A DNA stretch of 64,000 nt from a virus, in IMG/VR virus record IMGVR_UViG_3300027983_000011, positions 1-64,000 of that record; one strand, 5' to 3'. Every line of letters begins with the position of its first letter. The first letter of the stretch is position 1. Below, one piece after another: positions 7,121-55,364 of this stretch. Made by a program: the position numbers and the translations under genes. The notes beneath the pieces were generated by a model. That model searched no databases and was not told the DNA's origin. It worked only from the letters and a program-made list of their open reading frames with translations.

Positions 7121-7143
7121 CCCCTAAGTCTTTAGCTTAGGGG
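7121..7143 (+). repeat. IS left-end hairpin
   Basis: CCCCTAAG / CTTAGGGG stem with loop TCTTTAG. The tnpA stop codon (TAG at 7124-7126, minus strand) lies inside it. The loop is identical to that of the right-end hairpin, consistent with both ends being bound by one TnpA dimer. Confidence 0.8.
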
Positions 7144-7549
7144 ATGAATTTCTGCCTTGATTTTGTATGTAGTTTTCTATAGTTTCTAAAGACATTTCCT
7201 CGCAGGTGGATATGAAATATCCATCGGACCAAAATGTTTTTTCTTTCCAAAAGTGCAATTTCAAAATATTTGGAATAATTTTCCACACTAAGATTGTTGT
7301 TTCTTGTTTTATTTTTCTAACTATTTGCAGTGGAGATAGTTTTGGGGCAGAGTTTATCAATATATGGATATGATTATTATCAAATCCAACGTAGTCAATA
7401 GAAAAATCAAGAAAAGTTTGATTGAAATAACAACGTAAAATATCACATAACCAAATGTCCAACAATGACTTTCTATATTTGACAACTAAAATAATATGAT
7501 ATTTTATCAAGAATTTTGCATGATTTTTAGAAAAATAAGATGTTTTCAT
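7124..7549 (-). CDS. tnpA: TnpA, Y1 (HUH) transposase of IS200/IS605
   Basis: A 141-residue single-strand transposase. The HUH metal site is DNNHIHIL (H60, H62) and the nucleophile is the tyrosine in ENYIQNQ (Y127). Length is typical (130-155). The start LIKYHIILVVKYRKSLL matches the family hallmark (YH-h-h-h-x-x-KYR). The ORF ends inside the left-end hairpin. It lies back to back with tnpB with only 24 bases between the starts, so both promoters must be within or close to this gap. All catalytic residues are present, so the element may still be mobile. Confidence 0.93.
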   Translation of the reverse strand: MKTSYFSKNHAKFLIKYHIILVVKYRKSLLDIWLCDILRCYFNQTFLDFSIDYVGFDNNHIHILINSAPKLSPLQIVRKIKQETTILVWKIIPNILKLHFWKEKTFWSDGYFISTCEEMSLETIENYIQNQGRNSSPKLKT

Positions 7550-7573
7550 CTAAATCGATGATATGTATAGTGG

Positions 7574-8773
7574 ATGTTCAAGTCAACCAAATATCGCTTA
7601 TACCCAAACAAAGAACAAAAGGTTCTTTTGGATAAGCATTTTGGATGCGTAAGATTTATCTACAATTTTGGATTGGAATTAAAAAATAAAACATATCAAG
7701 AGACAGGAAAATCTATTTCCAGATATGAAATTCAAGCTAAAATTCCAATTCTCAAAAAGGAAAAAGGATTTCTAAAAGACGTAAATTCATTATCTCTACA
7801 AGCCTCACTTGTCAATTTAGATAATGCGTTTTCAAAATTCTTCAAAAAGACCGCCGATTATCCGAATTTCAAATCCAAACATATATCGCGGGATTCATTT
7901 CAAGTGGTTCAAAATGTAAAAGTAATCGGTAATAAATTATTTATTCCAAAATTCAAACAAGGAATTGAGGTTGTTATATCCCGTCCGATAATCGGAGAAA
8001 TAAAGACTTGCACTGTTTCTAAATCGCCCTCTGGAAAATATTTCATTTCAATTTTGACTGACACCGGTATTGAAATTCCTACCCAACTTCCACTAAATTT
8101 AGATAAATCTATTGGGTTGGATGTTGGGATAAAAACATTTGTTACATTATCAACCGGAGAAAAAATTGATAATCCAAAATGGATTTCAAAATCTGCTAAA
8201 AAACTGCATAGACAACAGAGAATTATGTCTCGTAGAAATAAACAGTCAAAACGTAGAGATAAACAAAGACAAATAGTTGCTGTCATTCACGAGAAAATAG
8301 CAAACCAAAGAAAAGACTTTCATCATAAAATAAGTAAAAATATCGTTGACGAGAACCAAGTCATTTGTATTGAAGACCTTTCTATAAAAAATATGATTAA
8401 AAATAGGAGACTGTCAAAAGCAATCTCCGATTGTGGATGGGGACAATTCTTGTCTTTCATTCAATACAAAGCAAAATGGAAAGGTCATACTATCATAAAA
8501 ATAGGAAGATTCGAACCATCATCGAAGATGTGCTCATGCGGCAAAATAAATAACAATCTAAAACAGTCCGATAGAACATGGAAATGTTCTTGTGGATTGG
8601 AACATGATAGAGATATATTAGCAGCAAATAACATCAAGAAATTTGCTTTGTTGAAACCAAACTTTGTAGGGCAGGAACTGCCCGAAATTACGCTCGGGGA
8701 GAGTGGCAATATCATTAAAAATGATCTAAAATGCTGCTCAACGAACCGAGAATCCGTTAGGTCTTTAGCCTAG
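7574..8773 (+). CDS. tnpB: TnpB, RNA-guided RuvC-like nuclease of IS605
   Basis: A 399-residue TnpB. The N-terminal YRLYPNKEQKVLLDKHFGC is typical. RuvC motifs are GLDVGIKTF (D183), CIEDLSIKNM (E267) and HDRDILAANNI (D347). A four-Cys zinc ribbon lies at C320/C322 and C338/C340. TnpB uses a guide RNA (omegaRNA) made from the 3' end of its own transcript, and cuts donor sites to favour retention of the element. All catalytic residues are present. The stop codon falls in the right-end hairpin at 8771-8773, so scaffold and coding region overlap as usual. Confidence 0.95.
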   Translation: MFKSTKYRLYPNKEQKVLLDKHFGCVRFIYNFGLELKNKTYQETGKSISRYEIQAKIPILKKEKGFLKDVNSLSLQASLVNLDNAFSKFFKKTADYPNFKSKHISRDSFQVVQNVKVIGNKLFIPKFKQGIEVVISRPIIGEIKTCTVSKSPSGKYFISILTDTGIEIPTQLPLNLDKSIGLDVGIKTFVTLSTGEKIDNPKWISKSAKKLHRQQRIMSRRNKQSKRRDKQRQIVAVIHEKIANQRKDFHHKISKNIVDENQVICIEDLSIKNMIKNRRLSKAISDCGWGQFLSFIQYKAKWKGHTIIKIGRFEPSSKMCSCGKINNNLKQSDRTWKCSCGLEHDRDILAANNIKKFALLKPNFVGQELPEITLGESGNIIKNDLKCCSTNRESVRSLA

Positions 8774-9861: not shown

Positions 9862-11061
9862 TTATCTACCAACTTCTCCGAAAAATTCTTTATTGGCTTT
9901 CGTGTAAGACATGTCAATCATTGTATTATAATAAAGAACATCACCTTTGAGTCGGTTCTCATCGTGTAATTTAGAATACCGCTTGATTGCCTTAGCTCTC
10001 CACCACTCAACCATAGTACTAGAATCACCCTCAAAACGCTTTGTGAGTTTCAATTGTGCTTCGTCCGTCAACCGTTTACATAGAAAGTCTCTCGTATTCT
10101 CATAAAATGAAGCATAATAGACGCCTCGTTCAAATCCGTGGTTATATTTGGAGGCTTTGATGCCAAGTTCACGAAAGATAATTTCAAGAATCCGTTGTTT
10201 TACTCCAGTAACGGGACCTGTGTTATTTCCGTCTTTCTTTACGGTCTTTCTCTCATATTCCTCCGCACGGTTTTCTTTGATATAGTTGTGCCACATTTCA
10301 TAATAACTATTGTCAGGTTTGATTGAAATTTTACCAGCGGAGCACCCACATCCGTGCCAATGGGGAATTCCACAATACATTGAGTTAGGACCATATAGAC
10401 TGGTTGTAGTCATTCCTACAAGGGTTTTACCAACAACCTGCTTCCATATATCACGAACATACTTTGATAGCACAAGGGAAGCTATCAGTTTTCCGCCAAG
10501 AAAATTATAACCAAACGGTTGAGTTCCCATAATGCAACTACCAATGGCTGAATGAATGAGCATTTTATCTTTGATGCGATTCTCCGTGGTCCACCCAAGG
10601 TGTTTATCACGACACGTTAGAGCCATAACATCATTGCTGATAGACGTGGCTCCTAAATATTTTCCCGTGTTATCATCAATAATTAAGAATCGAATAAAAC
10701 GACCGGGGGTTTGATCGTAAGCCATTGTATGACAAAATATACGAATCATTAACCAATCTTCCATGTGCGTCTTATTCGTCGGTTCCACATAAAATATACG
10801 TGGTTTCATATCTCGGATTTCCTGCAAGGTCTGTTCCTTGTTAGTAATATCCATTGGCCGATAAATCTTTGCTTTAACTTCTTCGGATTTTGAAGCTGAA
10901 TCTCTATAATTCTTAACCTCCACCCACTTCTTATAAAATACACTCTCTTCTACAGACATAGTTTTTAACTTGTCCATATGAGCAATAAATTTAATTTTCT
11001 CCGCCTCATGGTCGAACACGGTTTGCTCGAAAAATATATCTGCTGAATTTACTTTACTCAT
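9862..11061 (-). CDS. DUF4338 (DruA-like) family protein
   Basis: A 399-residue protein. The central region fits DUF4338: FLIIDDNTGKYLGATSIS, CRDKHLGWTTENRIKDKML, GGKLIASLVLSKYVRDIW and VGMTTTSLYGPNSMYCGIP. A small Cys cluster (CGIPHWHGCGCSAGK) follows. DUF4338 is the domain of DruA from the Druantia defence system, and free-standing copies also occur in mobile elements and phages. The function of the phage copies is not known; they may be decoys, inhibitors or DNA-acting enzymes. It overlaps the upstream small membrane protein gene by four bases (ATGA), so the two are coupled. The family call is by eye. Confidence 0.55.
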   Translation of the reverse strand: MSKVNSADIFFEQTVFDHEAEKIKFIAHMDKLKTMSVEESVFYKKWVEVKNYRDSASKSEEVKAKIYRPMDITNKEQTLQEIRDMKPRIFYVEPTNKTHMEDWLMIRIFCHTMAYDQTPGRFIRFLIIDDNTGKYLGATSISNDVMALTCRDKHLGWTTENRIKDKMLIHSAIGSCIMGTQPFGYNFLGGKLIASLVLSKYVRDIWKQVVGKTLVGMTTTSLYGPNSMYCGIPHWHGCGCSAGKISIKPDNSYYEMWHNYIKENRAEEYERKTVKKDGNNTGPVTGVKQRILEIIFRELGIKASKYNHGFERGVYYASFYENTRDFLCKRLTDEAQLKLTKRFEGDSSTMVEWWRAKAIKRYSKLHDENRLKGDVLYYNTMIDMSYTKANKEFFGEVGR

Positions 11062-19457: not shown

Positions 19458-20231
19458 TTATTTACGAATAGTCCAAGCGTCAGCTGCTAGATTTGGGTTG
19501 GATATGTAAGAAAATGGCATTTTAAAATATCCATTTTGCCCCCAACCTTCGCCCCAGCTATTTCTAACTAAAAGCTGACCATCTGAAATATTGTAACCAA
19601 CTGCACACACCGCGTGCCCACCTAGAAATGTTTCGTTCGGTTTTGGAAGTTCGAGAATTCCCGTTTTAGCAACATTCGGACCTTCAAATTCTGTGTAGAC
19701 AGAGAATCCAAACACAAAGGGAAAACCCGCTGCCAAACACGCCAACATGTCTGGCAACGAATTTAAGCGAGCATACTCAGTAATCTTGTGAGTCTTAGCT
19801 GCTTCATAACAATTCGCCAATGGTTTAATCTTAAATTTGTTAATGTCATAGTCCCACAACCGTTCGTCACATGTTCCGTGAGTTGCTAAAGCCTGTATCG
19901 TTGAGCGTAATGACGCTCCACTGTCAACTTCAATATTTCCTTCAATTTCCCGTGTGTTGTAGTACACAAACAATCGACTAAAATTCTCACAATCTGTTTC
20001 CATACTTTCATCTAAAATTTCAAGATACTCCAAAGCTCCAACAACAGAATTTGCTGTACATGAACCGAGAGTAGACTGATTCTCCACAGTAGAGCATTTC
20101 CCCCGTAAATCAATTTGATTTGGAATCGTCGATAAATTTTTAGGCACACCAACTGTTAAGACTCTATCACGAGAGTCAGCTATATCAGGTTTCCAACCGT
20201 ATTTTGAATTTTTCTTAGAGTGATGTGTCAT
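19458..20231 (-). CDS. Papain-family (C1A) cysteine protease
   Basis: A 257-residue protease-like protein with the full C1A set: oxyanion Gln and catalytic Cys in NQSTLGSCTAN (Q52, C58), catalytic His in GGHAVCAVGY (H206) and Asn in VRNSWGEGWGQNGYFKMP (N224). No signal peptide is seen, and the propeptide is only about 35 residues, so it should act inside the cell or in the virion. C1A proteases occur in several giant viruses and large phages, with unknown targets. The start codon lies within a perfect 12-bp inverted repeat that may control translation. Confidence 0.92.
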   Translation of the reverse strand: MTHHSKKNSKYGWKPDIADSRDRVLTVGVPKNLSTIPNQIDLRGKCSTVENQSTLGSCTANSVVGALEYLEILDESMETDCENFSRLFVYYNTREIEGNIEVDSGASLRSTIQALATHGTCDERLWDYDINKFKIKPLANCYEAAKTHKITEYARLNSLPDMLACLAAGFPFVFGFSVYTEFEGPNVAKTGILELPKPNETFLGGHAVCAVGYNISDGQLLVRNSWGEGWGQNGYFKMPFSYISNPNLAADAWTIRK

Positions 20232-21880: not shown

Positions 21881-22681
21881 TTATACAAAAAATGCCTCTG
21901 CCGTGTTAGGGTCAAAGTCTTTTGGATTTACAAATACTTCTGAAATTTCATCCGAATGAACATCCTGTTTCGGATATGGGTAAGTTTTGTGCTTTAGGTT
22001 CTCCATTATCTTTTTTCTCTCTTTACCCTTTAACAAGATGTAAATGTAGCGGTGTTTTGAGGATTCCTTTTTTCTCCAAAATGTGTGGCCAATAGCTTCC
22101 TTTAAGTGGTCAACATTATGACTACCATATCTTTCTGAAACAGTTCGGCTATGAATCCACTCATATGGATTACGTGTAAGGGACACGCTGTAGTTTGGCA
22201 TAAGGGCTAATTGTGAGTTTCCTTGGTATAACCAATTGGTACTCTGATATATAATACCCGTGTGTCCAGCTTCATTGTCAGCATAGCTCAATAGTGCTTT
22301 GATTTTTGGTCGGTTCTGACGTAACCAGTGAAAGCTTTGGCCGATGCAGTAGCTCTCCATATTCTTTGCATTGGGTATATCGGCTATCCACAGTCTGACA
22401 AGTTCATAAACCTCATTGATATTAAGGCTTTCGGAGATTGATGCTGCAGCAGACCGCCCAACGGGATTCCCATAAATGAGACACCCAATCAATTTTTCCG
22501 TGTCGTTTTCAAAAAAACTGGATTCACTCGGTTCTTGTTTTAAAAATACACCTAAGGCCACCGAACACAAACTCCACTTGTGGGAATAATGGTTCTTAAC
22601 AATTATATCTTTAGCGATGAGATGATTAATCTCCCGTAGGAATATTTTAGATGTATCTACGAACGAAATAGAGTTGCTCAT
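21881..22681 (-). CDS. Mom-like DNA modification protein (GNAT fold)
   Basis: A 266-residue protein. Its centre matches the Mom family: NEVYELVRLWIADIPNA, ESYCIGQSFHWLRQ, IKALLSYADNEAGHTGIIYQ and STNWLYQG. The start IVKNHYSHKW is also typical. Mu Mom converts adenine to a carbamoylmethyl form and protects phage DNA from restriction. Homologues are found in many phages. The protein probably modifies the phage DNA. It has its own TTGACA-N17-TATTGT promoter, consistent with early or middle expression. The family match is strong; the exact base product is unknown. Confidence 0.8.
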   Translation of the reverse strand: MSNSISFVDTSKIFLREINHLIAKDIIVKNHYSHKWSLCSVALGVFLKQEPSESSFFENDTEKLIGCLIYGNPVGRSAAASISESLNINEVYELVRLWIADIPNAKNMESYCIGQSFHWLRQNRPKIKALLSYADNEAGHTGIIYQSTNWLYQGNSQLALMPNYSVSLTRNPYEWIHSRTVSERYGSHNVDHLKEAIGHTFWRKKESSKHRYIYILLKGKERKKIMENLKHKTYPYPKQDVHSDEISEVFVNPKDFDPNTAEAFFV

Positions 22682-22720: not shown

Positions 22721-23253
22721 CGCTTAAAATTCAAAATTTGCTTTTCTGAGAATTGGATATTTCTTACCAATTCAAATAACACTACGAAGCCGAGGTTCCC
22801 GAAAAGAGATTTGATATAAAATACCCACGCCGGTGTATATTGTGGCATGCCATAAACCACCGCGTTGAACCATTCATGTATTCCGTTTCCGTAGATTGGA
22901 TTAATCGACCACGCAAATGTACTTGTCAACAGAAAATACGATGTCGTCGCAACAAATGTCTTTAGAATTAAATTCATCTGTTTTAATCTTCCAAGACAGT
23001 GTATTGAATATAAAAATAACATCATGAACATCATGTTCCAGCCAACCATGGGCATATTATAGTGCCAATTAATGACGCAATCGGAAATAATATAACCTAT
23101 AAGTGGAATATGAACATAATTGGTTAATTCTTTTCGAAAGCATAAAAACAATGCAAACAGCGGCGTCACGTTAAGAAGGATATCATATTCAATTCCGGCG
23201 AGCCGGAAAAGAACAACAAATGCGGTAAGGAGTAGGGGGAATGTGTATTTCAT
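22717..23253 (-). CDS. DUF6580-like integral membrane protein
   Basis: A 178-residue protein with about five membrane segments (FPLLLTAFVVLFRLAG, VTPLFALFLCF, IPLIGYIISDCVI, MMFMMLFLYSI, FGNLGFVVLFELV). NVTPLFALFLC and the following ISD pattern fit DUF6580, a bacterial family resembling the S-components of ECF vitamin transporters. The gene lies after the BFD-type protein and the B12-dependent reductase NrdJ, with a four-base ATGA overlap. A role in cofactor uptake, possibly cobalamin, is an inference from this neighbourhood only. Confidence 0.6.
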   Translation of the reverse strand: MKYTFPLLLTAFVVLFRLAGIEYDILLNVTPLFALFLCFRKELTNYVHIPLIGYIISDCVINWHYNMPMVGWNMMFMMLFLYSIHCLGRLKQMNLILKTFVATTSYFLLTSTFAWSINPIYGNGIHEWFNAVVYGMPQYTPAWVFYIKSLFGNLGFVVLFELVRNIQFSEKQILNFKR

Positions 23254-23438
23254 ATTTCAAATTCTAGTTGACCCGTTTTTAACATCGTTTCTATAAACGG
23301 AAAGCATAATTGACACATTGTACCGCAACCGGTTTCTTCACGGATTTCTTGTAGAGTTGTTAGATTTTTTTGGTCGGCCATAATTTTTAATTTATCAAAA
23401 GTTGTATCGAAACACACACACATATTTATCGTACTCAT
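23250..23438 (-). CDS. BFD-like [2Fe-2S] protein
   Basis: I start at the ATG that shares one base with the nrdJ stop (TAATG). The 62-residue product has CVCFDTTFDKLK near the N-terminus and GCGTMCQLCFPFIE near the C-terminus, the C-x-C ... C-x2-C layout of BFD-type [2Fe-2S] ferredoxins. Such domains carry electrons to ferritins or reductases. Tight coupling with NrdJ suggests it could feed electrons to ribonucleotide reduction, which is an inference. Confidence 0.7.
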   Translation of the reverse strand: MSTINMCVCFDTTFDKLKIMADQKNLTTLQEIREETGCGTMCQLCFPFIETMLKTGQLEFEI

Positions 23439-24484
23439 TATTTGATAGGACATGCCCCTCCGGCACATTCAACGTCGAGACTCTCCGAACCAATGTCATG
23501 TTTTATGGTTGATATCGGCTTAACGTTTTTTGAGAGCTCTTTGTATTTTTCTTCAGTAATTTCTTCGTATGGGGCTTGGCGAAATCCGTGTCCAGAATGA
23601 AGAAGGAAGCTGACCGATTTAAGACTGGTCTCGTAATTCTTCTTCATCCAGTCTTTGATGTCAGTCAATTCCTCTTCCTTATAATAAATGGTAACAGAGA
23701 CAGCATTATCGGCCCAAATGGTTTGTAATTTTTTAACAAGTTCAAGTTGGTTTATCGCTCCCATGTCATTTGCTAAAATAGCATTTTTCCCATCAGCACA
23801 TGGAAATTCGACAACCACATTCTCTCGGTCAAGAGTTCCATCTAATCGAACGAGATATTCAATATTATAACCAAGTTCTTTACAAATCGGAATCAGTTTA
23901 TCGCCAGAGCCCATTTGGACTCGACGAATGTAGTAGTTGGCGAAGGCCGGATGGCCGCCTGGTGTGGAGCCAGCCAATAAACTTAACGTTCCAGAAGGCT
24001 TTACTGTTGTGAGTTTAATACTAACAGGATAGCCACAGGCCTTGCTCCATTCAGCATCATACTTACGAAGTTCCTTATAGCAGTTATCCAACCAATCGAG
24101 CTTATCCATAGACTGACAGACTCCTGTTACGCCAAGACCGATTCTCATATTCTTTTTAACAATCGCTTTTGTTTTTTCATAGTGAAATGGTAGAGTCCAA
24201 ATAGCTTTTTGTGTCTTGTAAAGAAGTTTGGCGCATTCGTTCAATTCTTCTTGTGATGTAATGTTGTTTAAATACAATTCACATAGGTTACAAGCTTCAC
24301 CATCTCCCAAAGTAATTTCTGCGCAGTTATGAACTAACACATCGTTCGCAAAAAAGTTTTCGTTTTTCGCGACCGTTATATCATACACATCAGCGTTTTC
24401 AACAACTCTAATGCTTTTGATTTTTATACGTTTATAGGGTAAGTCCGTATTTTCTACGCGTTCTGTTTGATTAGTTGTTTCCAT
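23438..24484 (-). CDS. nrdJ: NrdJ C-terminal part with split intein IntC
   Basis: A 348-residue ORF. Residues 1-53 are a C-terminal split intein (VYDITVAKNENFFANDVLVHN) with the terminal His-Asn. Residue C54 begins the extein CAEITLGDGEACNLCELYL, a class II ribonucleotide reductase sequence. The C-extein continues through STPGGHPAFANYYIRRVQMG and ends ECAGGACPIK with two redox Cys. By analogy with the Lactobacillus enzyme, C54 is the thiyl-radical Cys and the Cys 11 residues later is a redox partner. The N-terminal half is the ORF at 24669-26555. Trans-splicing would join them. Confidence 0.92.
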   Translation of the reverse strand: METTNQTERVENTDLPYKRIKIKSIRVVENADVYDITVAKNENFFANDVLVHNCAEITLGDGEACNLCELYLNNITSQEELNECAKLLYKTQKAIWTLPFHYEKTKAIVKKNMRIGLGVTGVCQSMDKLDWLDNCYKELRKYDAEWSKACGYPVSIKLTTVKPSGTLSLLAGSTPGGHPAFANYYIRRVQMGSGDKLIPICKELGYNIEYLVRLDGTLDRENVVVEFPCADGKNAILANDMGAINQLELVKKLQTIWADNAVSVTIYYKEEELTDIKDWMKKNYETSLKSVSFLLHSGHGFRQAPYEEITEEKYKELSKNVKPISTIKHDIGSESLDVECAGGACPIK

Positions 24485-24690
24485 AATTTTAATTCTTTTC
24501 TATAGCTGCTTGTGTATGTCTTTATATTATCTATGACTATAATTTTTATGTCGGGGTATTCCTTTTTTAGAATATCCACCTTATACAGCCTGTCCTTGAA
24601 GTACCCCTTTAATTCGACGATGTATTCTCCTACGGTATCCTTTATTGTAAAATCCGTGCGACATTTCTTCAGATTATTTTTAGCAAAACG
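24454..24690 (-). pseudogene. Remnant of a PD-(D/E)XK homing endonuclease between intein halves
   Basis: Between the two nrdJ ORFs a third minus-strand frame is open for 78 codons without a start codon. It reads FAKNNLKKCRTDFTIKD, VGEYIVELKGYFKDRLYKVD and so on, with D...ExK spacing (D13, E26, K28) typical of PD-(D/E)XK and Vsr-like nucleases. It overlaps the 3' end of IntN and the 5' end of IntC. Free-standing endonucleases of this kind are known inside genes fractured at split inteins. This one looks truncated and dead. Confidence 0.5.
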
Positions 24691-26555
24691 TCATCGGGTG
24701 TTAAAATTGAGGCCTTAACATATCCCCTGTTTTCTGTGTATACAAGATGATTTGGTGTCATCTTTATCGTTGTTCCATCTTCGAGTTCCAGCTCTATGAT
24801 GTCGGCCTGTTTTCTTGTAAGGTCGCCGGTTTCTATTGGAGAATTTTCTAAAATTCCTGTTTTTATGTCAAGAGATGAAGCCCACACAATATCTCCATTT
24901 TTTACATCTTTGATAACATCTTCAAGTTTTTTATTTCCGCGAGAAGTGTGTATCAGTGTATCACCTGTTAGACAAGGATTCACGCCTTCACAGTTATCTT
25001 TGTTTGTCGGATACATTTTATTATCCTTCATCGGACCATCAATCAAGCGTCCAAATTTTTGAGCCAATGGAATATTGATAAATCCATAAGGTTCTCCCTT
25101 AGCCATTCCTGTTTCAGCATCTTTCTGATAGCCGGTCTCCCAAATGTCCCGAGATATTTGATTGAAACTATCAGCATAGATTGAGTTGTTGGATTTATTT
25201 CTCCAATTAGGAATGTTTCCATCCGCCCAATTTTTAGCGCGAATGTAAAGATGGTCATCTGGGTCGCCAATAGCAATCTGAGCAGAATTATGACTTACAA
25301 TAAATGTATTATTTTCTGGATTCGCTACATAGAAATAATTTTTCTCATCAACTTCAATGTCTATAGTTTTAGTCGTGTGAGTATCATATTCAATTTCCAC
25401 TATTGGAATAAGGTCATAATCTTCAAGATTGAAATCTTCTAAATTTTTTTCTTTTTTAATCTCATAAGTGTATTTACTTTTTGTTTCGATTACAAGATTT
25501 TTAGGTTTTACTAGAAAATCTGTCTCCTTGTTGATTTCATCTACACTCTTCCATTCCATACCATTTACTTTATTATAAATAAGAAGTCTGTGGTTTTTGG
25601 TTGCTGAAAAGGTTTCTCCGTCGATAGTCTTTATGGTTGATACATTCTGTGTTCCCTGGTCAAATACTGCATTTACTTTTTTATATCCATAAGCGGTTTT
25701 AACATTATCCCCAACTTTTATATCTGACAATGCAACACTCCCCCTTTCAGTATATACTAGGTAGTTATCAGGCAAACATCTTCTCACATTACCGGCCACC
25801 ACGACTGAACCAATGATATTATTGATATCGAGTACGTCAATGGAGCGCAGTTTCTTGCCCTCACGACCTTGTAGAACAGAAATGATTTGTTCGATACCAG
25901 TTACCAATATCGTAGGACCGGAAGCGGTTCCACCAAATCCAGAAATCTTCTCACCAGACCCACGGACTAAAATTGTAGAATATGTAAATGATTTTCCAGA
26001 TACAAAAAATGAATCAACCACTTTTCTCAAAAGACTAACCCAACCTTCGCGAGAGTCTGGGACAATGAAGTCTGTATCTTTTGTAGATTGGTGTATGACA
26101 CTGACGCCAGCTTTTACTTTTGGTAATTCGTGAATATCAGCCCTCTGAACGGAAAACCCTACTCCGCCGCCTAGCATGAGATTTTCAAATACAAAGCAGA
26201 AATCTTCAATATCATTCATGGAGACAAACCAGCAGTTTAAAAGCGAAGCGCCACCGTAACGAGCCACCGTAGGTGCACCAAGTTGCCACAACATACGTCC
26301 GGCAAAATTACACTTTAGATTGAATACCAAGTCGTATAGTCGCTCAGCTTCTTCTTTTGTATACTTTGCTCCAATATCTTGGGCACCATTTATACAACGT
26401 TCGACTGTCTCAAACCATTCTTCTTTTGTTCCATCGCCCTTGATGCGTGAATATGTTCGCTTATATACGATATAACCGAGACCATTAAATCCCCAGTCTG
26501 GGTTTTTATTTTTATATTTGTTGACGAACGCATCTGATAGAATTTTTTCTGACAT
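24669..26555 (-). CDS. nrdJ: NrdJ N-terminal part with cis-intein and split intein IntN
   Basis: A 628-residue ORF of a monomeric class II (B12-dependent) ribonucleotide reductase. Extein residues 1-259 include GRMLWQLGAPTVARYGGASL and the redox Cys in LLNCWF (C108). A mini-intein spans C260-N423 (164 residues; TKNH block B, ends SHN, next residue S424) between GNVRR and SAQIAIGD. Extein resumes 424-527. A split IntN starts at C528 (CLTGDTLIHTSRGNKK) and ends the ORF at 628 with a TPNHLVYTENRGYVKA block. With the C-half the spliced protein would be about 658 residues. It reduces ribonucleotides using adenosylcobalamin. Confidence 0.93.
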   Translation of the reverse strand: MSEKILSDAFVNKYKNKNPDWGFNGLGYIVYKRTYSRIKGDGTKEEWFETVERCINGAQDIGAKYTKEEAERLYDLVFNLKCNFAGRMLWQLGAPTVARYGGASLLNCWFVSMNDIEDFCFVFENLMLGGGVGFSVQRADIHELPKVKAGVSVIHQSTKDTDFIVPDSREGWVSLLRKVVDSFFVSGKSFTYSTILVRGSGEKISGFGGTASGPTILVTGIEQIISVLQGREGKKLRSIDVLDINNIIGSVVVAGNVRRCLPDNYLVYTERGSVALSDIKVGDNVKTAYGYKKVNAVFDQGTQNVSTIKTIDGETFSATKNHRLLIYNKVNGMEWKSVDEINKETDFLVKPKNLVIETKSKYTYEIKKEKNLEDFNLEDYDLIPIVEIEYDTHTTKTIDIEVDEKNYFYVANPENNTFIVSHNSAQIAIGDPDDHLYIRAKNWADGNIPNWRNKSNNSIYADSFNQISRDIWETGYQKDAETGMAKGEPYGFINIPLAQKFGRLIDGPMKDNKMYPTNKDNCEGVNPCLTGDTLIHTSRGNKKLEDVIKDVKNGDIVWASSLDIKTGILENSPIETGDLTRKQADIIELELEDGTTIKMTPNHLVYTENRGYVKASILTPDDVLLKII

Positions 26556-26624: not shown

Positions 26625-27116
26625 TCACAAATCTTTATTATTACCAAAGTCGTCTTTACGATATCCTCTCCATTTTGAGCTAAGTTGTTTTTTGACATCA
26701 TTTTCCCCATCATCGGATTCCATGTTAGATTTTATGTTGGAAGATTCTGCTGATTTTTCGTCATAAATACGTATATCACCATTGCCCGTGTCCATCTTCG
26801 AGTATAAGGTTATACCATCTGGTCCAAAGCGGTTCTTAATGATGTGCATTCGTGCCGTACTATTAGCCTTATCAGAAATATTTCGTGAAGCGCTCATCAC
26901 AAAGTCCGCCGTCATAATTTTACGGTAACTGTCGGAAACGTTATGTGCCTGAACAATATCTTCGCCTGCGCCGCTATTGTGAGTGTATACGTCATTGGCA
27001 AAAAACATATGCGTGTCGGCAACGGTTATGTCGATGGTTGGCCGGTCGCCCAACAGCTGAATACTCTCAATTTCGTCTAAGATAAAATCTTCGGGGTTTA
27101 GGTCATGTTCTTTCAT
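26625..27116 (-). CDS. 41: Helicase gp41 C-terminal part with split intein IntC
   Basis: A 163-residue ORF. Residues 1-47 are IntC (TIDITVADTHMFFANDVYTHN) ending His-Asn, followed by S48 as the +1 residue. The C-extein SGAGEDIVQAHNVSDSYRKI through MHIIKNRFGPDGITLYSKMD is the end of a DnaB/gp41-type helicase. Helicase ends of this kind hold the arginine finger and last RecA-fold strands, so the fragment alone cannot work. It follows the N-half by only 36 bases; no endonuclease is between them. An acidic tail follows the fold. Confidence 0.92.
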   Translation of the reverse strand: MKEHDLNPEDFILDEIESIQLLGDRPTIDITVADTHMFFANDVYTHNSGAGEDIVQAHNVSDSYRKIMTADFVMSASRNISDKANSTARMHIIKNRFGPDGITLYSKMDTGNGDIRIYDEKSAESSNIKSNMESDDGENDVKKQLSSKWRGYRKDDFGNNKDL

Positions 27117-27152
27117 AATTTTTGTTGATAAATTTGATGCAATTTTCTATGA

Positions 27153-28478
27153 TTACTTTTTAGTAAAAAGTTTATCGCCAACCGATAGGCCGGTCTGAAT
27201 ATTTTTAAAATTTCCATATTGAGTCGGAAACAGATGCCGTGAAGAGCAGTCGATATATTTTCCACTTTTTAACTTAATTCGATACACTGGTTGGTTTTCT
27301 ATCGGAAAAATTTTTGTGACAGACTTATATCCGGCGTGTGTTAATACTTTATCTCCAGAAACTAAATCCCTAGCCTGGATGATTCCTTTCGTATCTACTT
27401 GAATATTAGTGTCTAATGAAAAACAGCGATTTGTTTGTGAGGCGGTCCAGATAGGCACCCCCAACTCACCCGCAATCATACGAAGTTCTTCATAGATTCC
27501 ACCCATTTCTGAGTAGCTATTAGAATTCTTTTCTTTTTCAATCGGCCGGAGAATGTCAGCGTAATCAACGATGATAAGGTCTGGTTTAATTCCCTCTAAC
27601 ATAGCAACTCTCTCAAAGTGAAATTTGAGTGATTGAGCGCTCACCGTTTTGATTGGAAAATATTTCACAAACAACTTTCCTGGTACAGACTTGAGTTTTT
27701 CCTTAACTGCGTCAGCGTAATTTTTAACATTTTGAAATTGAATTCCTGTAAAACAACAATCATATCGAAGTCCGACATAATTTTCATTCAATTCTAAGGT
27801 GTAATGTAGTACATTTTTTCCCTTCAACATTGCAGATGCACCGACTCGCGCCAAAAGCCAACTCTTACCAATACCAGCGGGAGCAACAAATACTCCAAGT
27901 TCTCCTGGCCCAAGACCCCCGTCGATAAGCGAATCAACTACATCCCAGCCAGTTGAAACCGTCTTGCGTGACATTTCACTCATACGTTTGTCAACTTCGA
28001 TGTGATAGTTGTGGCCGAGATTTCTTTCCATGCCGGCTTTAAGAGCTTCATCAACTAAATGTTTAACCTTTTCATACTCACCCACCTTAATCAAATCGAC
28101 CGAATTAATAATCGCTCCCTTTAGTTTTTGATTCTTACAAAATTCAAGAAACTGTTCACGAACAAAATCTAAATCCGAATCAGTCAATTTCAAGAACACC
28201 GATTTCAAATTGTCAATTACCATAGCCTTCAATATTTCATTATTGATGGTAGAAATTCTAACCTTGAATACCTGTAACGTTGGAACGGAACTGTATTCAA
28301 GATAGTATGAAAACGTCTCTTTCAAAATCCAACGGTGTGCTTCGTTCTCAAAGGCCTCTGGGTCTGCAATGTCAAGAACTCTTTCTAAGAAAGTTTTTTC
28401 TGAAAGGATACCAGCGATGATTTTTGCTTGAAATTCAAGTCCATACTTGTGTAGATTATCTATAATGATTGGTGACAT
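27153..28478 (-). CDS. 41: Helicase gp41 N-terminal part with split intein IntN
   Basis: A 441-residue ORF. Residues 1-351 are a DnaB-family replicative helicase: N-terminal helical domain, Walker A APAGIGKSWLLA (199-210), Walker B LIIVDYADIL (301-310) and WTASQTNR (344-351). At C352 an IntN begins (CFSLDTNIQVDTKG) and runs 90 residues to the stop, with block B SSRHLFPTQYG. Insertion after TNR is the site of the gp41-type split inteins found in environmental phage sequences. Exteins sum to about 467 residues, close to T4 gp41 (475). Confidence 0.94.
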   Translation of the reverse strand: MSPIIIDNLHKYGLEFQAKIIAGILSEKTFLERVLDIADPEAFENEAHRWILKETFSYYLEYSSVPTLQVFKVRISTINNEILKAMVIDNLKSVFLKLTDSDLDFVREQFLEFCKNQKLKGAIINSVDLIKVGEYEKVKHLVDEALKAGMERNLGHNYHIEVDKRMSEMSRKTVSTGWDVVDSLIDGGLGPGELGVFVAPAGIGKSWLLARVGASAMLKGKNVLHYTLELNENYVGLRYDCCFTGIQFQNVKNYADAVKEKLKSVPGKLFVKYFPIKTVSAQSLKFHFERVAMLEGIKPDLIIVDYADILRPIEKEKNSNSYSEMGGIYEELRMIAGELGVPIWTASQTNRCFSLDTNIQVDTKGIIQARDLVSGDKVLTHAGYKSVTKIFPIENQPVYRIKLKSGKYIDCSSRHLFPTQYGNFKNIQTGLSVGDKLFTKK

Positions 28479-32797: not shown

Positions 32798-33699
32798 TAC
32801 GTTTGAGGTAGAGCTCTCTTTATGAAAACAGATAGAGCTTCTCTATCTGGGTGATTCACCGGAACAACCTGTTCGTCATATCCTACAACGGCAACTTTTT
32901 CACCTTCGCCGCCGTGCCATTCACCATATGGAGTCTCTTTCCAATTTTTTGAAAGAGCAAATTTCTTTGTCAGCTCTGGAATTGAAGGTCCGCTTGGAGC
33001 TGCTGGAGCCGGTGCCGGAGCTGCTGGAGGCTTCGGAGTCGAATCGGTTGCTGCAACTGTCCCACCAGCTGAGCTTTCGGGTGACGCTGGAGCAGCCGGC
33101 TCTGTTTCTGGACTTCCCGCGCTCGGTAATTCAGAATCACCAGAAGGTTGTGGTTTTGGAGTTGTATTGGTTGGTTCATCTTTAGCTGGGACAGCCGGAG
33201 ATTGAGGGTCCACCTTTACACCACCAGCAGCCGGAGCAGTTTGTTGAGCTGGTGCAACAGCTTTGGCTGGCACCGGTGTATCTGGTGCTGTTGGTTGTTC
33301 TCCTTGCACTGGTTCACTTGTGCTCACATCTTGCTGAGATTGGTGAGCCGTCTTACCCTTCTTTTTATAATACGTGTTCATCCCGCCTCGGCCGTGAGTA
33401 GGATCATTTTGGAAATGCGTACCCTTTTGAATAGCGGCATTACGATAATCGGCTGATGGAAATGTTACTAACCAACCTTCTTTATTGTAAGCCTGTCTAT
33501 CTGGATGTTTTCCCTCACGTAGTATTAAATTGTTTACAAGCTCTGTAACCATACCCGCGTCAAACCCAGCATCAAATAGACGCTCAGCTAAAACCTCAAC
33601 GTGTTCGGGGTTACTCATTTCTAAGATACCACTCTCAATCCTTTCATCGAGAGTGACTTCCATTAAAATCTCTTGAATAAAGTCATTTGTCTTTTTCAT
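32797..33699 (-). CDS. CTS-tagged protein with Pro/Ala-rich linker
   Basis: A 300-residue protein. The N-terminus MKKTNDFIQEILMEVTL carries two [LI]-x-E sites (IQE, LME) and resembles the tag of other proteins here. Residues 65-110 form a small unit (GWLVTFPSADYRNAAIQKGT; HGRGGMNTYY). A long Pro/Ala/Thr/Ser linker follows (about 120-245). The C-terminal 60 residues are another small unit (KNWKETPYGEWHGGEGE, VVPVNHPDREAL). Probably a virion or internal head protein. Function unknown. Confidence 0.55.
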   Translation of the reverse strand: MKKTNDFIQEILMEVTLDERIESGILEMSNPEHVEVLAERLFDAGFDAGMVTELVNNLILREGKHPDRQAYNKEGWLVTFPSADYRNAAIQKGTHFQNDPTHGRGGMNTYYKKKGKTAHQSQQDVSTSEPVQGEQPTAPDTPVPAKAVAPAQQTAPAAGGVKVDPQSPAVPAKDEPTNTTPKPQPSGDSELPSAGSPETEPAAPASPESSAGGTVAATDSTPKPPAAPAPAPAAPSGPSIPELTKKFALSKNWKETPYGEWHGGEGEKVAVVGYDEQVVPVNHPDREALSVFIKRALPQT

Positions 33700-52880: not shown

Positions 52881-53867
52881 ATGAATATGAAACCAGTAGA
52901 AAAGGATTATACCGTGGGCGTAATTGTGGCGCGTTTTCAGTGTGCCTCTCTCCACGAAGCACACAAAGAACTGATTGATACAGTTCTTTCTAACCATCCT
53001 AAAGTGATGATATTCCTTGGGTTAAGTCCCGTAAGAGGAAGTATTTACGACCCGCTAGACTTCCAGCCCCGCAAACAAATGATTCTTGAGGCATATCCCC
53101 ACGATAAATTTCCAAACTTGTCTATTGGCTACGTCAAAGACAATCGTTCTGATTCCGATTGGTCCACTAAGCTGGATGAAAATATCAGAACGGAAATGGA
53201 ACCAAATGACACAGTTGTTCTTTATGGCAGCCGAGATTCATTTTTGACCCACTACACTGGCAAATTCGATGTTCGCGAGTTGCAGTCCACTCGTTACGTC
53301 TCAGGCACCGAACTGAGAGCCAAGATTGCTCAGGCACCTCAGAATAATCCACAATTTCGGGCGGGAGCTATTTGGGCAACGGCCCAGCGATACCCACTGG
53401 TTTACTCCACTGTTGATATCCTGGTATTCGACCCTAAAGAACGTCGAGTTCTTTTGGCCCGTAAGCCCCTCGAAAGCCAGTATCGTTTCGTAGGTGGTTT
53501 TGCCGACCCAAAGGATGATTCGTTTGAAGTTTCCGCTCTTCGTGAACTGTCTGAGGAAACTGGTCTAGCCGTTGGTCTGGTCGGACTCCGTTACGTCGGG
53601 AGCAAGAAGGTTGATGACTGGCGCTATGCTAACAATCCTTCTGAAAAAATCATGACCCATTTGTACGTTGGAGTTTACTCCATGGGCTGCCCAAAGGCGA
53701 ATGATGACATTGCTGAGGTTCGTTGGTTTGATTATGACAAATTGAACACGACCACTACAAATAGCGAAGGAACCAAATCCGCCGCTGAATTTACATTGGT
53801 GGAAGAGCACCGCCCTCTTTGGGTGATGGTTAAAAATTACATTGATACAAACTTTCCGAAGGCTTGA
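52881..53867 (+). CDS. nadM: Bifunctional NMN adenylyltransferase / Nudix hydrolase
   Basis: A 328-residue two-domain protein. N-terminal nucleotidyltransferase: GVIVARFQCASLHEAHKELI (HxxH of the ATP site) and VSGTELRAKI, the (I/V)SxTxxR motif. C-terminal Nudix domain: GGFADPKDDSFEVSALREL then SEETGL. KVP40 NatV has the same architecture. The first domain makes NAD+ from NMN and ATP; the second cleaves ADP-ribose or similar. With the NAMPT gene it forms a two-step route from nicotinamide to NAD+. An operon promoter lies upstream. Confidence 0.93.
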   Translation: MNMKPVEKDYTVGVIVARFQCASLHEAHKELIDTVLSNHPKVMIFLGLSPVRGSIYDPLDFQPRKQMILEAYPHDKFPNLSIGYVKDNRSDSDWSTKLDENIRTEMEPNDTVVLYGSRDSFLTHYTGKFDVRELQSTRYVSGTELRAKIAQAPQNNPQFRAGAIWATAQRYPLVYSTVDILVFDPKERRVLLARKPLESQYRFVGGFADPKDDSFEVSALRELSEETGLAVGLVGLRYVGSKKVDDWRYANNPSEKIMTHLYVGVYSMGCPKANDDIAEVRWFDYDKLNTTTTNSEGTKSAAEFTLVEEHRPLWVMVKNYIDTNFPKA

Positions 53868-53924
53868 TATAACATAAGCCGACGAAACAACAAACAGAAA
53901 TCCTGATAAAGATAAGGAAATTAT

Positions 53925-55364
53925 ATGAACAACATAATGACACAGACTGACAGTTACAAGATGGGTGGACACTGGAATATGTACCCCGCAAACACCAATG
54001 GAGTGTATTCATACTTTGAATCCCGTAAAGGGGCAAAGTTTGACAAGACTCCGTTTTTCGGGCTTCAATACATCATCAAGAAATACCTCGTTGGTATCGT
54101 GGTAACACGAGCCAAGATTGAGCAGGCAGCAATGCTGGCCACGGCTCACTTTGGCAACAGCACCTATTTCAATCGCTCCGGTTGGGAATACATTCTCAAA
54201 GCGCACGGCGGCAAGCTGCCCCTTCGCATTAGGGCAGTGCCCGAAGGGATGCCCGTCACCGTGAATAACATTCTCATGTCGGTGGAGAACACCGACCCAA
54301 AGACCCCGTGGTTGACCAACTACGTTGAGTCTTTGCTAACTCACGTGTGGTATTCGTCTACCGTTGCCGCATTGAGTCGGTCCACCAAGGAAATGTTTAC
54401 TGAATTCCTCAGTCGCACGAGCGATAATCCGGGTTGCATCAACTTCATGTTGCACGATTTTGGATATCGCGGAGCCACGACCGCCGAAGCCGCTGGTATT
54501 GGTGGATGTGCTCACATCACTAACTTTCTTGGGACCGATACGCTTCCCGCGTTGGAATTCGCCGCCGAATACTATGGTGGCATCTGGGCCGACCGTGCCG
54601 GGGAAGACGTCAACCCTTACAGCGGTCTCGCTTACAGTGTAGCCGCTACCGAGCACAGTGTAATGACTGCATTAGGACCAAAGGGAGAGATCGATATTCT
54701 TGAAGACCTTTTAAACAAATACCCAACCGGTATTTTGAGCGTGGTCTCAGACTCATACGACATTTACAACTTTGTTGAAAACTTTGTGTGTAAGCAGTTC
54801 AAAGACCGCATCCTTGCCCGTGATGGTGTATTCGTGGTTCGCCCTGACAGTATTTCGCCAACCCACCCAACACCGGAAGGTGAAACGTTGTGGATTGTCG
54901 AGACGTTGGCCAACAACATGGGCTACACCACCAATAGCAAGGGCTTCAAGGTTCTCAATCCTAAGACCCGCGTATTGTGGGGCGATGGTATTGATAAGGA
55001 CGGAATTGAAAAGATTCTCACCACACTTGAGAAGGCCGGATATTCTTCCGAGAACATGGTCTTCGGTATGGGCGGCGGATTGTTACAGAAGTTGAACCGC
55101 GATACTCAGAGTTTTGCATTCAAGTCGAGTGCTCAGAAGCGTGATGGTAAGTGGCACGACATTTACAAACAGCCTAAGGATTTGTCCAAGGCTTCTAAGC
55201 GTGGCAAGTTGAAGTTGTTCAAAGATGGTGATGGATTCAAAACAGTGAGCAGCAATGACGTCGGCTACAACAACGAAACCGACATTTTGGAGACGGTCTT
55301 TGAAGATGGTGACATCATCAAAGAATACACCTTCGATGAAGTTAGAAACAATATCAAACTATGA
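53925..55364 (+). CDS. nadV: Nicotinamide phosphoribosyltransferase (NAMPT)
   Basis: A 479-residue NAMPT/NadV. The N-terminus TQTDSYKMGGHWNMYPAN is typical. FHDFGYRG-type motif is present as LHDFGYRGATTAEAAGIGG, and the PRPP loop region as VSDSYDIYNF and RPDSISPTHPTPEG; GMGGGLLQKLNRDTQSFAFK is the conserved C-terminal site. It converts nicotinamide and PRPP to NMN, which the upstream enzyme turns into NAD+. Together they can rebuild NAD+ destroyed by host defence systems such as Thoeris or DSR. Confidence 0.96.
   Translation: MNNIMTQTDSYKMGGHWNMYPANTNGVYSYFESRKGAKFDKTPFFGLQYIIKKYLVGIVVTRAKIEQAAMLATAHFGNSTYFNRSGWEYILKAHGGKLPLRIRAVPEGMPVTVNNILMSVENTDPKTPWLTNYVESLLTHVWYSSTVAALSRSTKEMFTEFLSRTSDNPGCINFMLHDFGYRGATTAEAAGIGGCAHITNFLGTDTLPALEFAAEYYGGIWADRAGEDVNPYSGLAYSVAATEHSVMTALGPKGEIDILEDLLNKYPTGILSVVSDSYDIYNFVENFVCKQFKDRILARDGVFVVRPDSISPTHPTPEGETLWIVETLANNMGYTTNSKGFKVLNPKTRVLWGDGIDKDGIEKILTTLEKAGYSSENMVFGMGGGLLQKLNRDTQSFAFKSSAQKRDGKWHDIYKQPKDLSKASKRGKLKLFKDGDGFKTVSSNDVGYNNETDILETVFEDGDIIKEYTFDEVRNNIKL

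What the first reader, a model, noticed from the sequence alone, without database searches (positions are those of the whole stretch)
23438..26555. Ribonucleotide reductase broken at a split intein directly before the thiyl-radical cysteine
The class II NrdJ is in two ORFs. The first ends with IntN after NCEGVNP; the second starts with IntC and then CAEITL. The +1 residue of the intein is the Cys that corresponds, by spacing (11 residues to the next redox Cys), to the thiyl-radical Cys of class II enzymes. No active enzyme can exist without trans-splicing, and the intein's own +1 nucleophile is the catalytic residue. The first ORF also carries a complete mini-intein at NVRR|SAQI, so one enzyme needs one cis- and one trans-splicing event. 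This fits the known NrdJ split-intein type.
Basis: partly seen in the sequence, partly recalled or inferred. Interest (0 to 1): 0.9.

Follow-up and report, generated by a model that had tools for sequence, protein, structure and literature searches.

The report
Phage DNA-precursor enzyme assembled by trans-splicing
A phage encodes ribonucleotide reductase, the enzyme that makes DNA building blocks, in two genes whose protein halves must be joined by a split intein exactly at the enzyme's catalytic cysteine; this belongs to a known kind of broken phage gene, but the comparison shows the arrangement is common in uncultured phages, and here the DNA-cutting gene that normally sits in the break has decayed to a stub.

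Summary
On the minus strand, nrdJ is split between ORF1 (24669-26555: N-extein, 164-aa cis mini-intein at NVRR|SAQI, middle extein, 101-aa IntN) and ORF2 (23438-24484: 53-aa IntC, then CAEITL to the end). In-silico splicing gives 658 aa that align with L. leichmannii RTPR (1L1L, E 4e-95); the intein's +1 Cys falls on the radical Cys C408, with C419 eleven residues on. A close relative (L184) has intein-free sequence at both junctions. Corrections: NrdJ-1 is the nearest solved intein, but lies one residue later (NPC|SEI) and does not use the radical Cys; the window site is NP|C. The break is not unique: 48 distinct phage RNR inteins fall into an NP|C (or NL|C) group (26 split, 6 cis) and an NPC|C/S group (14 split, 2 cis). 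Most split loci carry an endonuclease gene between the halves; here only its 3' tail survives, overlapping the IntC start codon. Sister phages show the same kind of deletion, and an in-frame fusion to a cis intein. Splicing itself is inferred; warning signs are Pro at -1 (bad for NrdJ-1) and Glu at the usual block-F His. A new member of the known 'fractured gene' kind.

The parts
25779..26555 (-). nrdJ ORF1, N-extein 1 (259 aa, M...NVRR)
   Evidence: Pfam RNR_Alpha 4.9e-23, RNR-II_ins_dom 5.8e-11, TIGR02505 RTPR 3.7e-48; 84% aa identity to L184
25287..25778 (-). cis mini-intein, 164 aa, NVRR|CLPD...SHN|SAQI, no endonuclease domain
   Evidence: Pfam Intein_splicing, TIGR01443; L184 reads NVRRSAQIAIGD uninterrupted; only the near-identical contig found in IMG/VR by this query
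24975..25286 (-). nrdJ middle extein (104 aa, SAQI...CEGVNP)
   Evidence: 80% aa identity to L184
24672..24974 (-). IntN of the split intein, 101 aa (CLTGDT...LLKII), stop at 24669-24671
   Evidence: TIGR01445 1.4e-13; best PDB match NrdJ-1 8UBS E 2.3e-13
24454..24690 (-). remnant of a homing-endonuclease gene: open frame of 78 codons without a usual start at its 5' end, in another frame than IntN and IntC, overlapping the IntC start by about 30 nt
   Evidence: 35 of 65 residues identical to the tail of the 255-aa endonuclease frame in L025, differences by codon position 23/14/43; 3' tail also matches L008 and L023
24326..24484 (-). IntC of the split intein, 53 aa (METTNQ...NENFFANDVLVHN)
   Evidence: TIGR01443 3.9e-8, Pfam Intein_splicing 5.8e-9; best PDB match NrdJ-1
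24323..24325 (-). codon of the intein +1 Cys = RNR radical Cys (residue 364 of the spliced protein, RTPR C408)
   Evidence: alignment to 1L1L, spliced numbering
23438..24325 (-). nrdJ C-extein (295 aa, CAEITL...ECAGGACPIK)
   Evidence: TIGR02505 6.9e-52, Ribonuc_red_lgC 1.3e-12; 52% identity to the intein-free RNR of MW202701
27153..28478 (-). neighbouring fractured gene: DnaB/gp41-type helicase N part plus IntN (27156-27425)
   Evidence: phage_DnaB 2.3e-23, intein_Nterm 2.1e-5; L184 helicase reads SQTNRGGAGEDVV without an intein
26625..27116 (-). helicase IntC (26976-27116) plus C-extein SGAGEDIV..., 36-nt gap to the N part, no endonuclease left
   Evidence: intein_Cterm 1.1e-4; coordinates; L023 keeps a 352-aa endonuclease gene at this place

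Best explanation
This is a 'fractured' phage nrdJ gene. Two polypeptides are translated. Their intein halves (101 + 53 aa) associate and trans-splice by the class 1 route: Cys1 N-S acyl shift after Pro, transthioesterification onto Cys+1, Asn cyclisation, S-N acyl shift. This joins NP to CAEITL and thereby rebuilds the NPCxE finger-loop motif of a monomeric class II (AdoCbl) RNR. The +1 nucleophile becomes the thiyl-radical Cys of the mature 658-aa enzyme, so the halves should not be active before splicing. A cis mini-intein at NVRR|SAQI must also leave. In relatives a free-standing, T7-endonuclease-I-like homing endonuclease gene lies between the halves; in this lineage that gene has been deleted down to its 3' tail, probably retained because it carries the ribosome-binding region and start codon of the IntC half. 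Shown by sequence: the anatomy, the intein-free sites, the kinship and the endonuclease remnant. Inferred: splicing, its chemistry, the enzyme's activity and the translational role of the tail.
For: The junctions are fixed by a close relative without these inteins: L184 reads CEGYNPCAEISLGDGEACNLCEL and NVRRSAQIAIGD. The spliced product aligns over its length with intein-free phage RNRs and with RTPR, C364 on C408. All class 1 nucleophiles and main motifs are present: Cys1, block B TPNH, block F Asp, HN at the C-terminus, Cys+1. dN/dS against L184 is about 0.05 in the two extein parts where it could be computed (dS is near saturation, so this is rough). The same architecture occurs in 26 distinct NP|C or NL|C split loci. 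L035 is an in-frame fusion of the two halves by an 841-nt deletion against its split sister L039, with flanks about 98% identical, which indicates that the halves of this family form one intein. Endonuclease deletion without fusion is seen in L047 against L052, and shortened gaps in L023, L065 and L028. The IntC start codon lies within the endonuclease tail ...ELKxWK in most split loci.
Against: No splicing has been observed. The residue before the intein is Pro; a -1 Pro seriously compromised NrdJ-1 in vitro (PMC13123727). The block-F His before NF is Glu here (Asn in L025), while nearly all other members scored have His (the search pattern favoured H or E). However, the TFIIB intein chain 5o9i in PDB shows AENF at this place. 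The 69,937-base record may be incomplete, so a second RNR gene or use of the host enzyme is not excluded.
Confidence: 0.88

Rival explanations
1. The gene is decaying: the intein no longer splices (Pro at -1, Glu in block F, endonuclease gone), and the phage relies on the host RNR or another copy.
For: -1 Pro and the F-block Glu depart from the best-studied relative NrdJ-1; the endonuclease gene is truncated.
Against: Both ORFs are fully open, all RNR catalytic residues are present, and dN/dS against L184 is about 0.05. -1 Pro is shared by all 29 NP|C nrdJ inteins scored and by the cis intein of the cultured Thermus phage G20c. No second RNR in the record.
Confidence: 0.07
2. The two polypeptides assemble non-covalently into an active enzyme without splicing, as reported for the gene-in-pieces NrdA of Aeromonas phage Aeh1 (Friedrich et al. 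2007, cited in PMC3653736 and PMC10448857).
For: A precedent for a phage RNR working in two pieces exists.
Against: Here complete intein halves with catalytic residues flank the break and would sit at the active-site finger loop, directly next to the radical Cys; intein-free and fused relatives exist.
Confidence: 0.03
3. The intervening region is an intron or other RNA-level element and the mRNA is spliced.
For: Group I introns are common in phage RNR genes (PMC3653736).
Against: Both halves carry protein intein domains with curated-family support, and each ORF has its own stop or start. The gap of 184 nt is largely filled by an endonuclease-tail frame. RNA families were not searched.
Confidence: 0.02

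Closest known systems
NrdJ-1 split intein (PDB 8UBS / 9OMB), first found in a marine metagenome
   Same: Same host gene type (nrdJ) and same active-site loop, naturally split at the same place in the intein fold; best PDB sequence match of both halves.
   Different: NrdJ-1 splices after NPC onto Ser (NPC|SEI, PMC13123727); the window splices after NP onto the radical Cys itself. -1 is Pro rather than Cys; block-F His is Glu.
Fractured genes (Dassa et al. 2009; its content known to me from memory, and from PMC3653736, which cites it for 7 nrdA and 2 nrdJ cases in ocean metagenomes)
   Same: Essential DNA-metabolism gene broken by a split intein in phage; related loci have a free-standing endonuclease gene between the halves.
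   Different: The endonuclease is reduced to a tail; the endonuclease of the nearest nrdJ locus looks T7-endonuclease-I-like (PF05367, E 0.0012, below its cut-off) rather than Vsr-like; two neighbouring genes are fractured, and a cis intein is present as well.
Intein in NrdJ of Thermus phage G20c (KX987127; 'likely intein', PMC6459318)
   Same: Inserted at exactly GLNP|CAEI, directly before the radical Cys, in a cultured phage.
   Different: Continuous cis intein with a large insert, not split.
L025 (IMGVR_UViG_3300037042_006844) fractured nrdJ
   Same: NP|C split intein, 54% intein identity and 69% identity of the adjoining extein; its endonuclease tail matches the window remnant.
   Different: Endonuclease frame complete; nrdJ appears broken a second time further downstream.

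Membership tests
Class 1 split intein | IntN with block A Cys1 and block B TxxH; IntC with block F and block G ending His-Asn, followed by Cys/Ser/Thr | tested here: met
   Sequence and family models; Cys1, TPNH, YDI, VHN|C all present
Class 1 split intein | Usual block-F His (described as less conserved in PMC4031507) | tested here: not met
   Glu instead (NENFF), Asn in L025; not obligatory for membership
Class 1 split intein | Trans-splicing activity | not testable with these tools
   needs expression; the cis fusion in a sister phage is indirect support
NrdJ-1 type insertion (NPC|S) | Insertion after the radical Cys with Ser +1 | tested here: not met
   window is NP|C; intein kinship to NrdJ-1 is met, the site is one residue earlier
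Fractured gene (split intein with free-standing endonuclease between the halves) | Conserved gene broken in two by split-intein halves | tested here: met
Fractured gene (split intein with free-standing endonuclease between the halves) | Free-standing endonuclease gene in the break | tested here: not met
   only a 78-codon remnant in the window; a full-length frame is present in relatives L025, L008, L027, L052. I read the window as a derived member that has lost it; the claim is 'derived from', not 'intact example of'
Monomeric class II RNR (RTPR, TIGR02505) | Radical Cys, paired redox Cys, C-terminal Cys pair, NPCxE motif, end-to-end alignment | tested here: met
   alignment to 1L1L E 4e-95; C364/C375/C108/C650/C655. 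Each unspliced ORF alone stays under the TIGR02505 cut-off
Monomeric class II RNR (RTPR, TIGR02505) | AdoCbl-dependent NTP reduction | not testable with these tools
   needs enzyme assay

The most novel reading that the evidence does not exclude
The NP|C inteins form a natural, widespread group of phage inteins that splice efficiently straight after proline and onto the enzyme's own catalytic cysteine. They would be a Pro(-1)-tolerant counterpart to NrdJ-1, and the sequestered radical Cys would keep the RNR strictly inactive until both halves are made and joined.
Probability: 0.4. Interest if true: 0.65.

Novelty: new member of a known kind. Interest (0 to 1): 0.5.

Why it matters
If these inteins splice, the phage cannot make deoxynucleotides with this enzyme until a protein ligation happens at the radical site itself. 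The family offers two practical things. It gives a natural set of split inteins with Pro at -1, a position reported to spoil NrdJ-1. It also gives a set of relatives (intein-free, cis, split with endonuclease, split without) that makes the evolution of split inteins directly testable.

Tried and rejected
Intein tree: the NP|C and NPC|C/S groups are clustered (4 changes of state against about 15 in shuffles), but deep branches are open, so how often the one-residue shift happened cannot be told. A scan with the cis mini-intein found only the near-identical contig. A genome-contig scan with the IntC alignment gave 5 weak matches, none in an RNR that I recognised. The idea that the gap hides a frameshifted fusion of IntN to an endonuclease tail was dropped: relatives show the same tail as the end of a full endonuclease frame. 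PF02867 proved a weak probe for this RNR branch, so the search for a second copy was repeated with the protein. The residue after block-F YDI/L differs between the two groups (T/S in 27 of 31, Q/E/N in 14 of 16), but the rows are related and this is only a lead. Dassa et al. 2009 is not held, so its exact insertion sites could not be compared. The literature searches returned nothing that I recognised as describing natural inteins with Pro at -1; most of those papers were not read. No structure prediction was run.

Full report
What is there. On the minus strand of a 69,937-base viral record, ORF 24669-26555 (628 aa) holds the N-terminal part of an RTPR-type class II ribonucleotide reductase, a 164-aa cis mini-intein at NVRR|SAQI (25287-25778), a middle extein, and after CEGVNP a 101-aa IntN (24672-24974). 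After 184 nt, ORF 23438-24484 begins with a 53-aa IntC (24326-24484) and continues with CAEITL...ECAGGACPIK. Family models support every piece. Removing both inteins gives 658 aa (73,453 Da) that align with the intein-free RNRs of MW202701 and Maribacter phage Panino and with L. leichmannii RTPR 1L1L at E 4e-95. Residues 364, 375, 108 and 650/655 fall on C408, C419, C119 and C731/C736.

Junctions. In contig L184, the nearest relative found (helicase extein identity 388/467 residues), the sequence reads CEGYNPCAEISLGDGEACNLCEL and NVRRSAQIAIGD without inteins, and the helicase reads SQTNRGGAGEDVVQAHN without one. The extein parts are 84, 80, 86 and 68% identical; dN/dS is about 0.05 in the two parts where it could be computed, with dS near saturation. 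L184's own nrdJ is broken elsewhere, at KPSG|T, with an endonuclease-like ORF in the break. So related phages carry differently placed breaks in the same gene. A second IMG/VR contig (L003) has the window arrangement with 2 SNPs in 11 kb, which speaks against an assembly error.

Kinship and site. Both halves match the solved NrdJ-1 intein best (IntN E 2.3e-13, IntC 4e-4). NrdJ-1's native exteins are NPC and SEI with an obligate Ser +1 (PMC13123727), so it sits one residue further on. A scan of IMG/VR with IntC plus C-extein gave 162 relatives, of which 80 were kept. After removal of duplicates, and with the window and a few loci from other calls, 48 inteins could be placed. The NP|C group (two of them NL|C, in class I nrdA) has 26 split and 6 cis; the NPC|C/S group has 14 split and 2 cis. 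All 29 NP|C nrdJ members scored have Pro at -1 and Cys at +1. The cultured Thermus phage G20c has a cis intein at GLNP|CAEI (called a likely intein in PMC6459318). An NCBIfam model for a B12-dependent RNR of 1684 positions (PRK08332) aligns across the IntC-extein junction over equal lengths (17-79 with 1205-1267), which suggests an intein at the same site there (inference).

The break itself. Most split loci have 700-900 nt between the halves with an endonuclease frame. The one in L025 matches PF05367 Phage_endo_I at E 0.0012, under its cut-off. The tail of this gene...ELKxWK, contains the IntC start codon in another frame in most loci. In the window only 78 codons of that frame survive (24454-24690). 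They are 35/65 identical to L025's tail, with differences by codon position 23/14/43, so coding constraint acted during much of the divergence; but the upstream part with the presumed catalytic Glu (WLRSTWE in relatives) is gone. A similar loss with the tail retained is seen in L023 (130 nt), L065 (115 nt) and L047 (288 nt). L047 against L052 is a recent deletion with 98-99% identical flanks, and L035 against L039 is an 841-nt deletion that fuses IntN and IntC in frame into a cis intein. The direction of these changes (loss rather than gain) is my inference.

Mechanism. I infer class 1 trans-splicing that rebuilds NPCAE; until then the radical Cys is tied up as the +1 residue and the enzyme should be inactive. 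Arguments for caution: a -1 Pro disrupted the first step in NrdJ-1, the block-F His is Glu, and no experiment exists. Against decay: open frames, intact catalytic residues, low dN/dS, the spread of NP|C inteins, and no other RNR found in the record. A PDB match to a TFIIB intein chain (5o9i) shows AENF at the block-F place, so Glu there is not unheard of.

Novelty. Fractured nrdJ genes and active-site RNR inteins are known. This is a new member, one residue off NrdJ-1 and past the loss of its endonuclease. The survey of two insertion registers and of split, cis and endonuclease-less sisters is the useful extension; I could not check it against the full list of Dassa et al. 2009.

Noticed in passing
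23250-23468 (-): 72-aa BFD-like [2Fe-2S] protein (PF04324, E 4.3e-8) overlapping the end of nrdJ; a similar CxC...CxxC frame lies just after nrdJ in relatives L119 and L184. Possibly an electron carrier linked to the RNR.
   Followed up: partly
26625-28478 (-): Neighbouring DnaB/gp41-type helicase is also fractured by a split intein (SQTNR|S...), endonuclease lost, 36-nt gap; L023 keeps a 352-aa DUF559/MTES_1575-type endonuclease at that place.
   Followed up: partly
L184 4434-7877; L023 3664-7648: nrdJ fractured at another place, KPSG|T (KPEG in L023; IntN starts CVVP, IntC ends HN|T), with an endonuclease-like ORF in the break; in L023 the gene is in three pieces.
   Followed up: partly
52881-55364 (+): Nudix-domain protein (PF00293) next to a NAMPT-like gene (PF18127, PF04095): looks like a phage NAD salvage pair.
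   Followed up: no
7124-8773: IS200/IS605-type Y1 transposase next to a TnpB gene (PF01385, PF07282) in opposite orientation inside the phage.
   Followed up: no
9862-11061 (-): DruA-like protein (PF14236, E 1.1e-22), a family named after the Druantia defence system, in a phage.
   Followed up: no
21881-22681 (-): Mom-family protein (PF25680, E 4.1e-46), suggesting DNA base modification by the phage.
   Followed up: no
starts at 33699, 45336, 45942 and 47881 (-): Several ORFs share a similar N-terminus (MKKxELKxxIRExL...), which could be a common leader or targeting peptide.
   Followed up: no
19458-20231 (-): Papain-family cysteine protease (PF00112, E 2.5e-15) in the phage.
   Followed up: no
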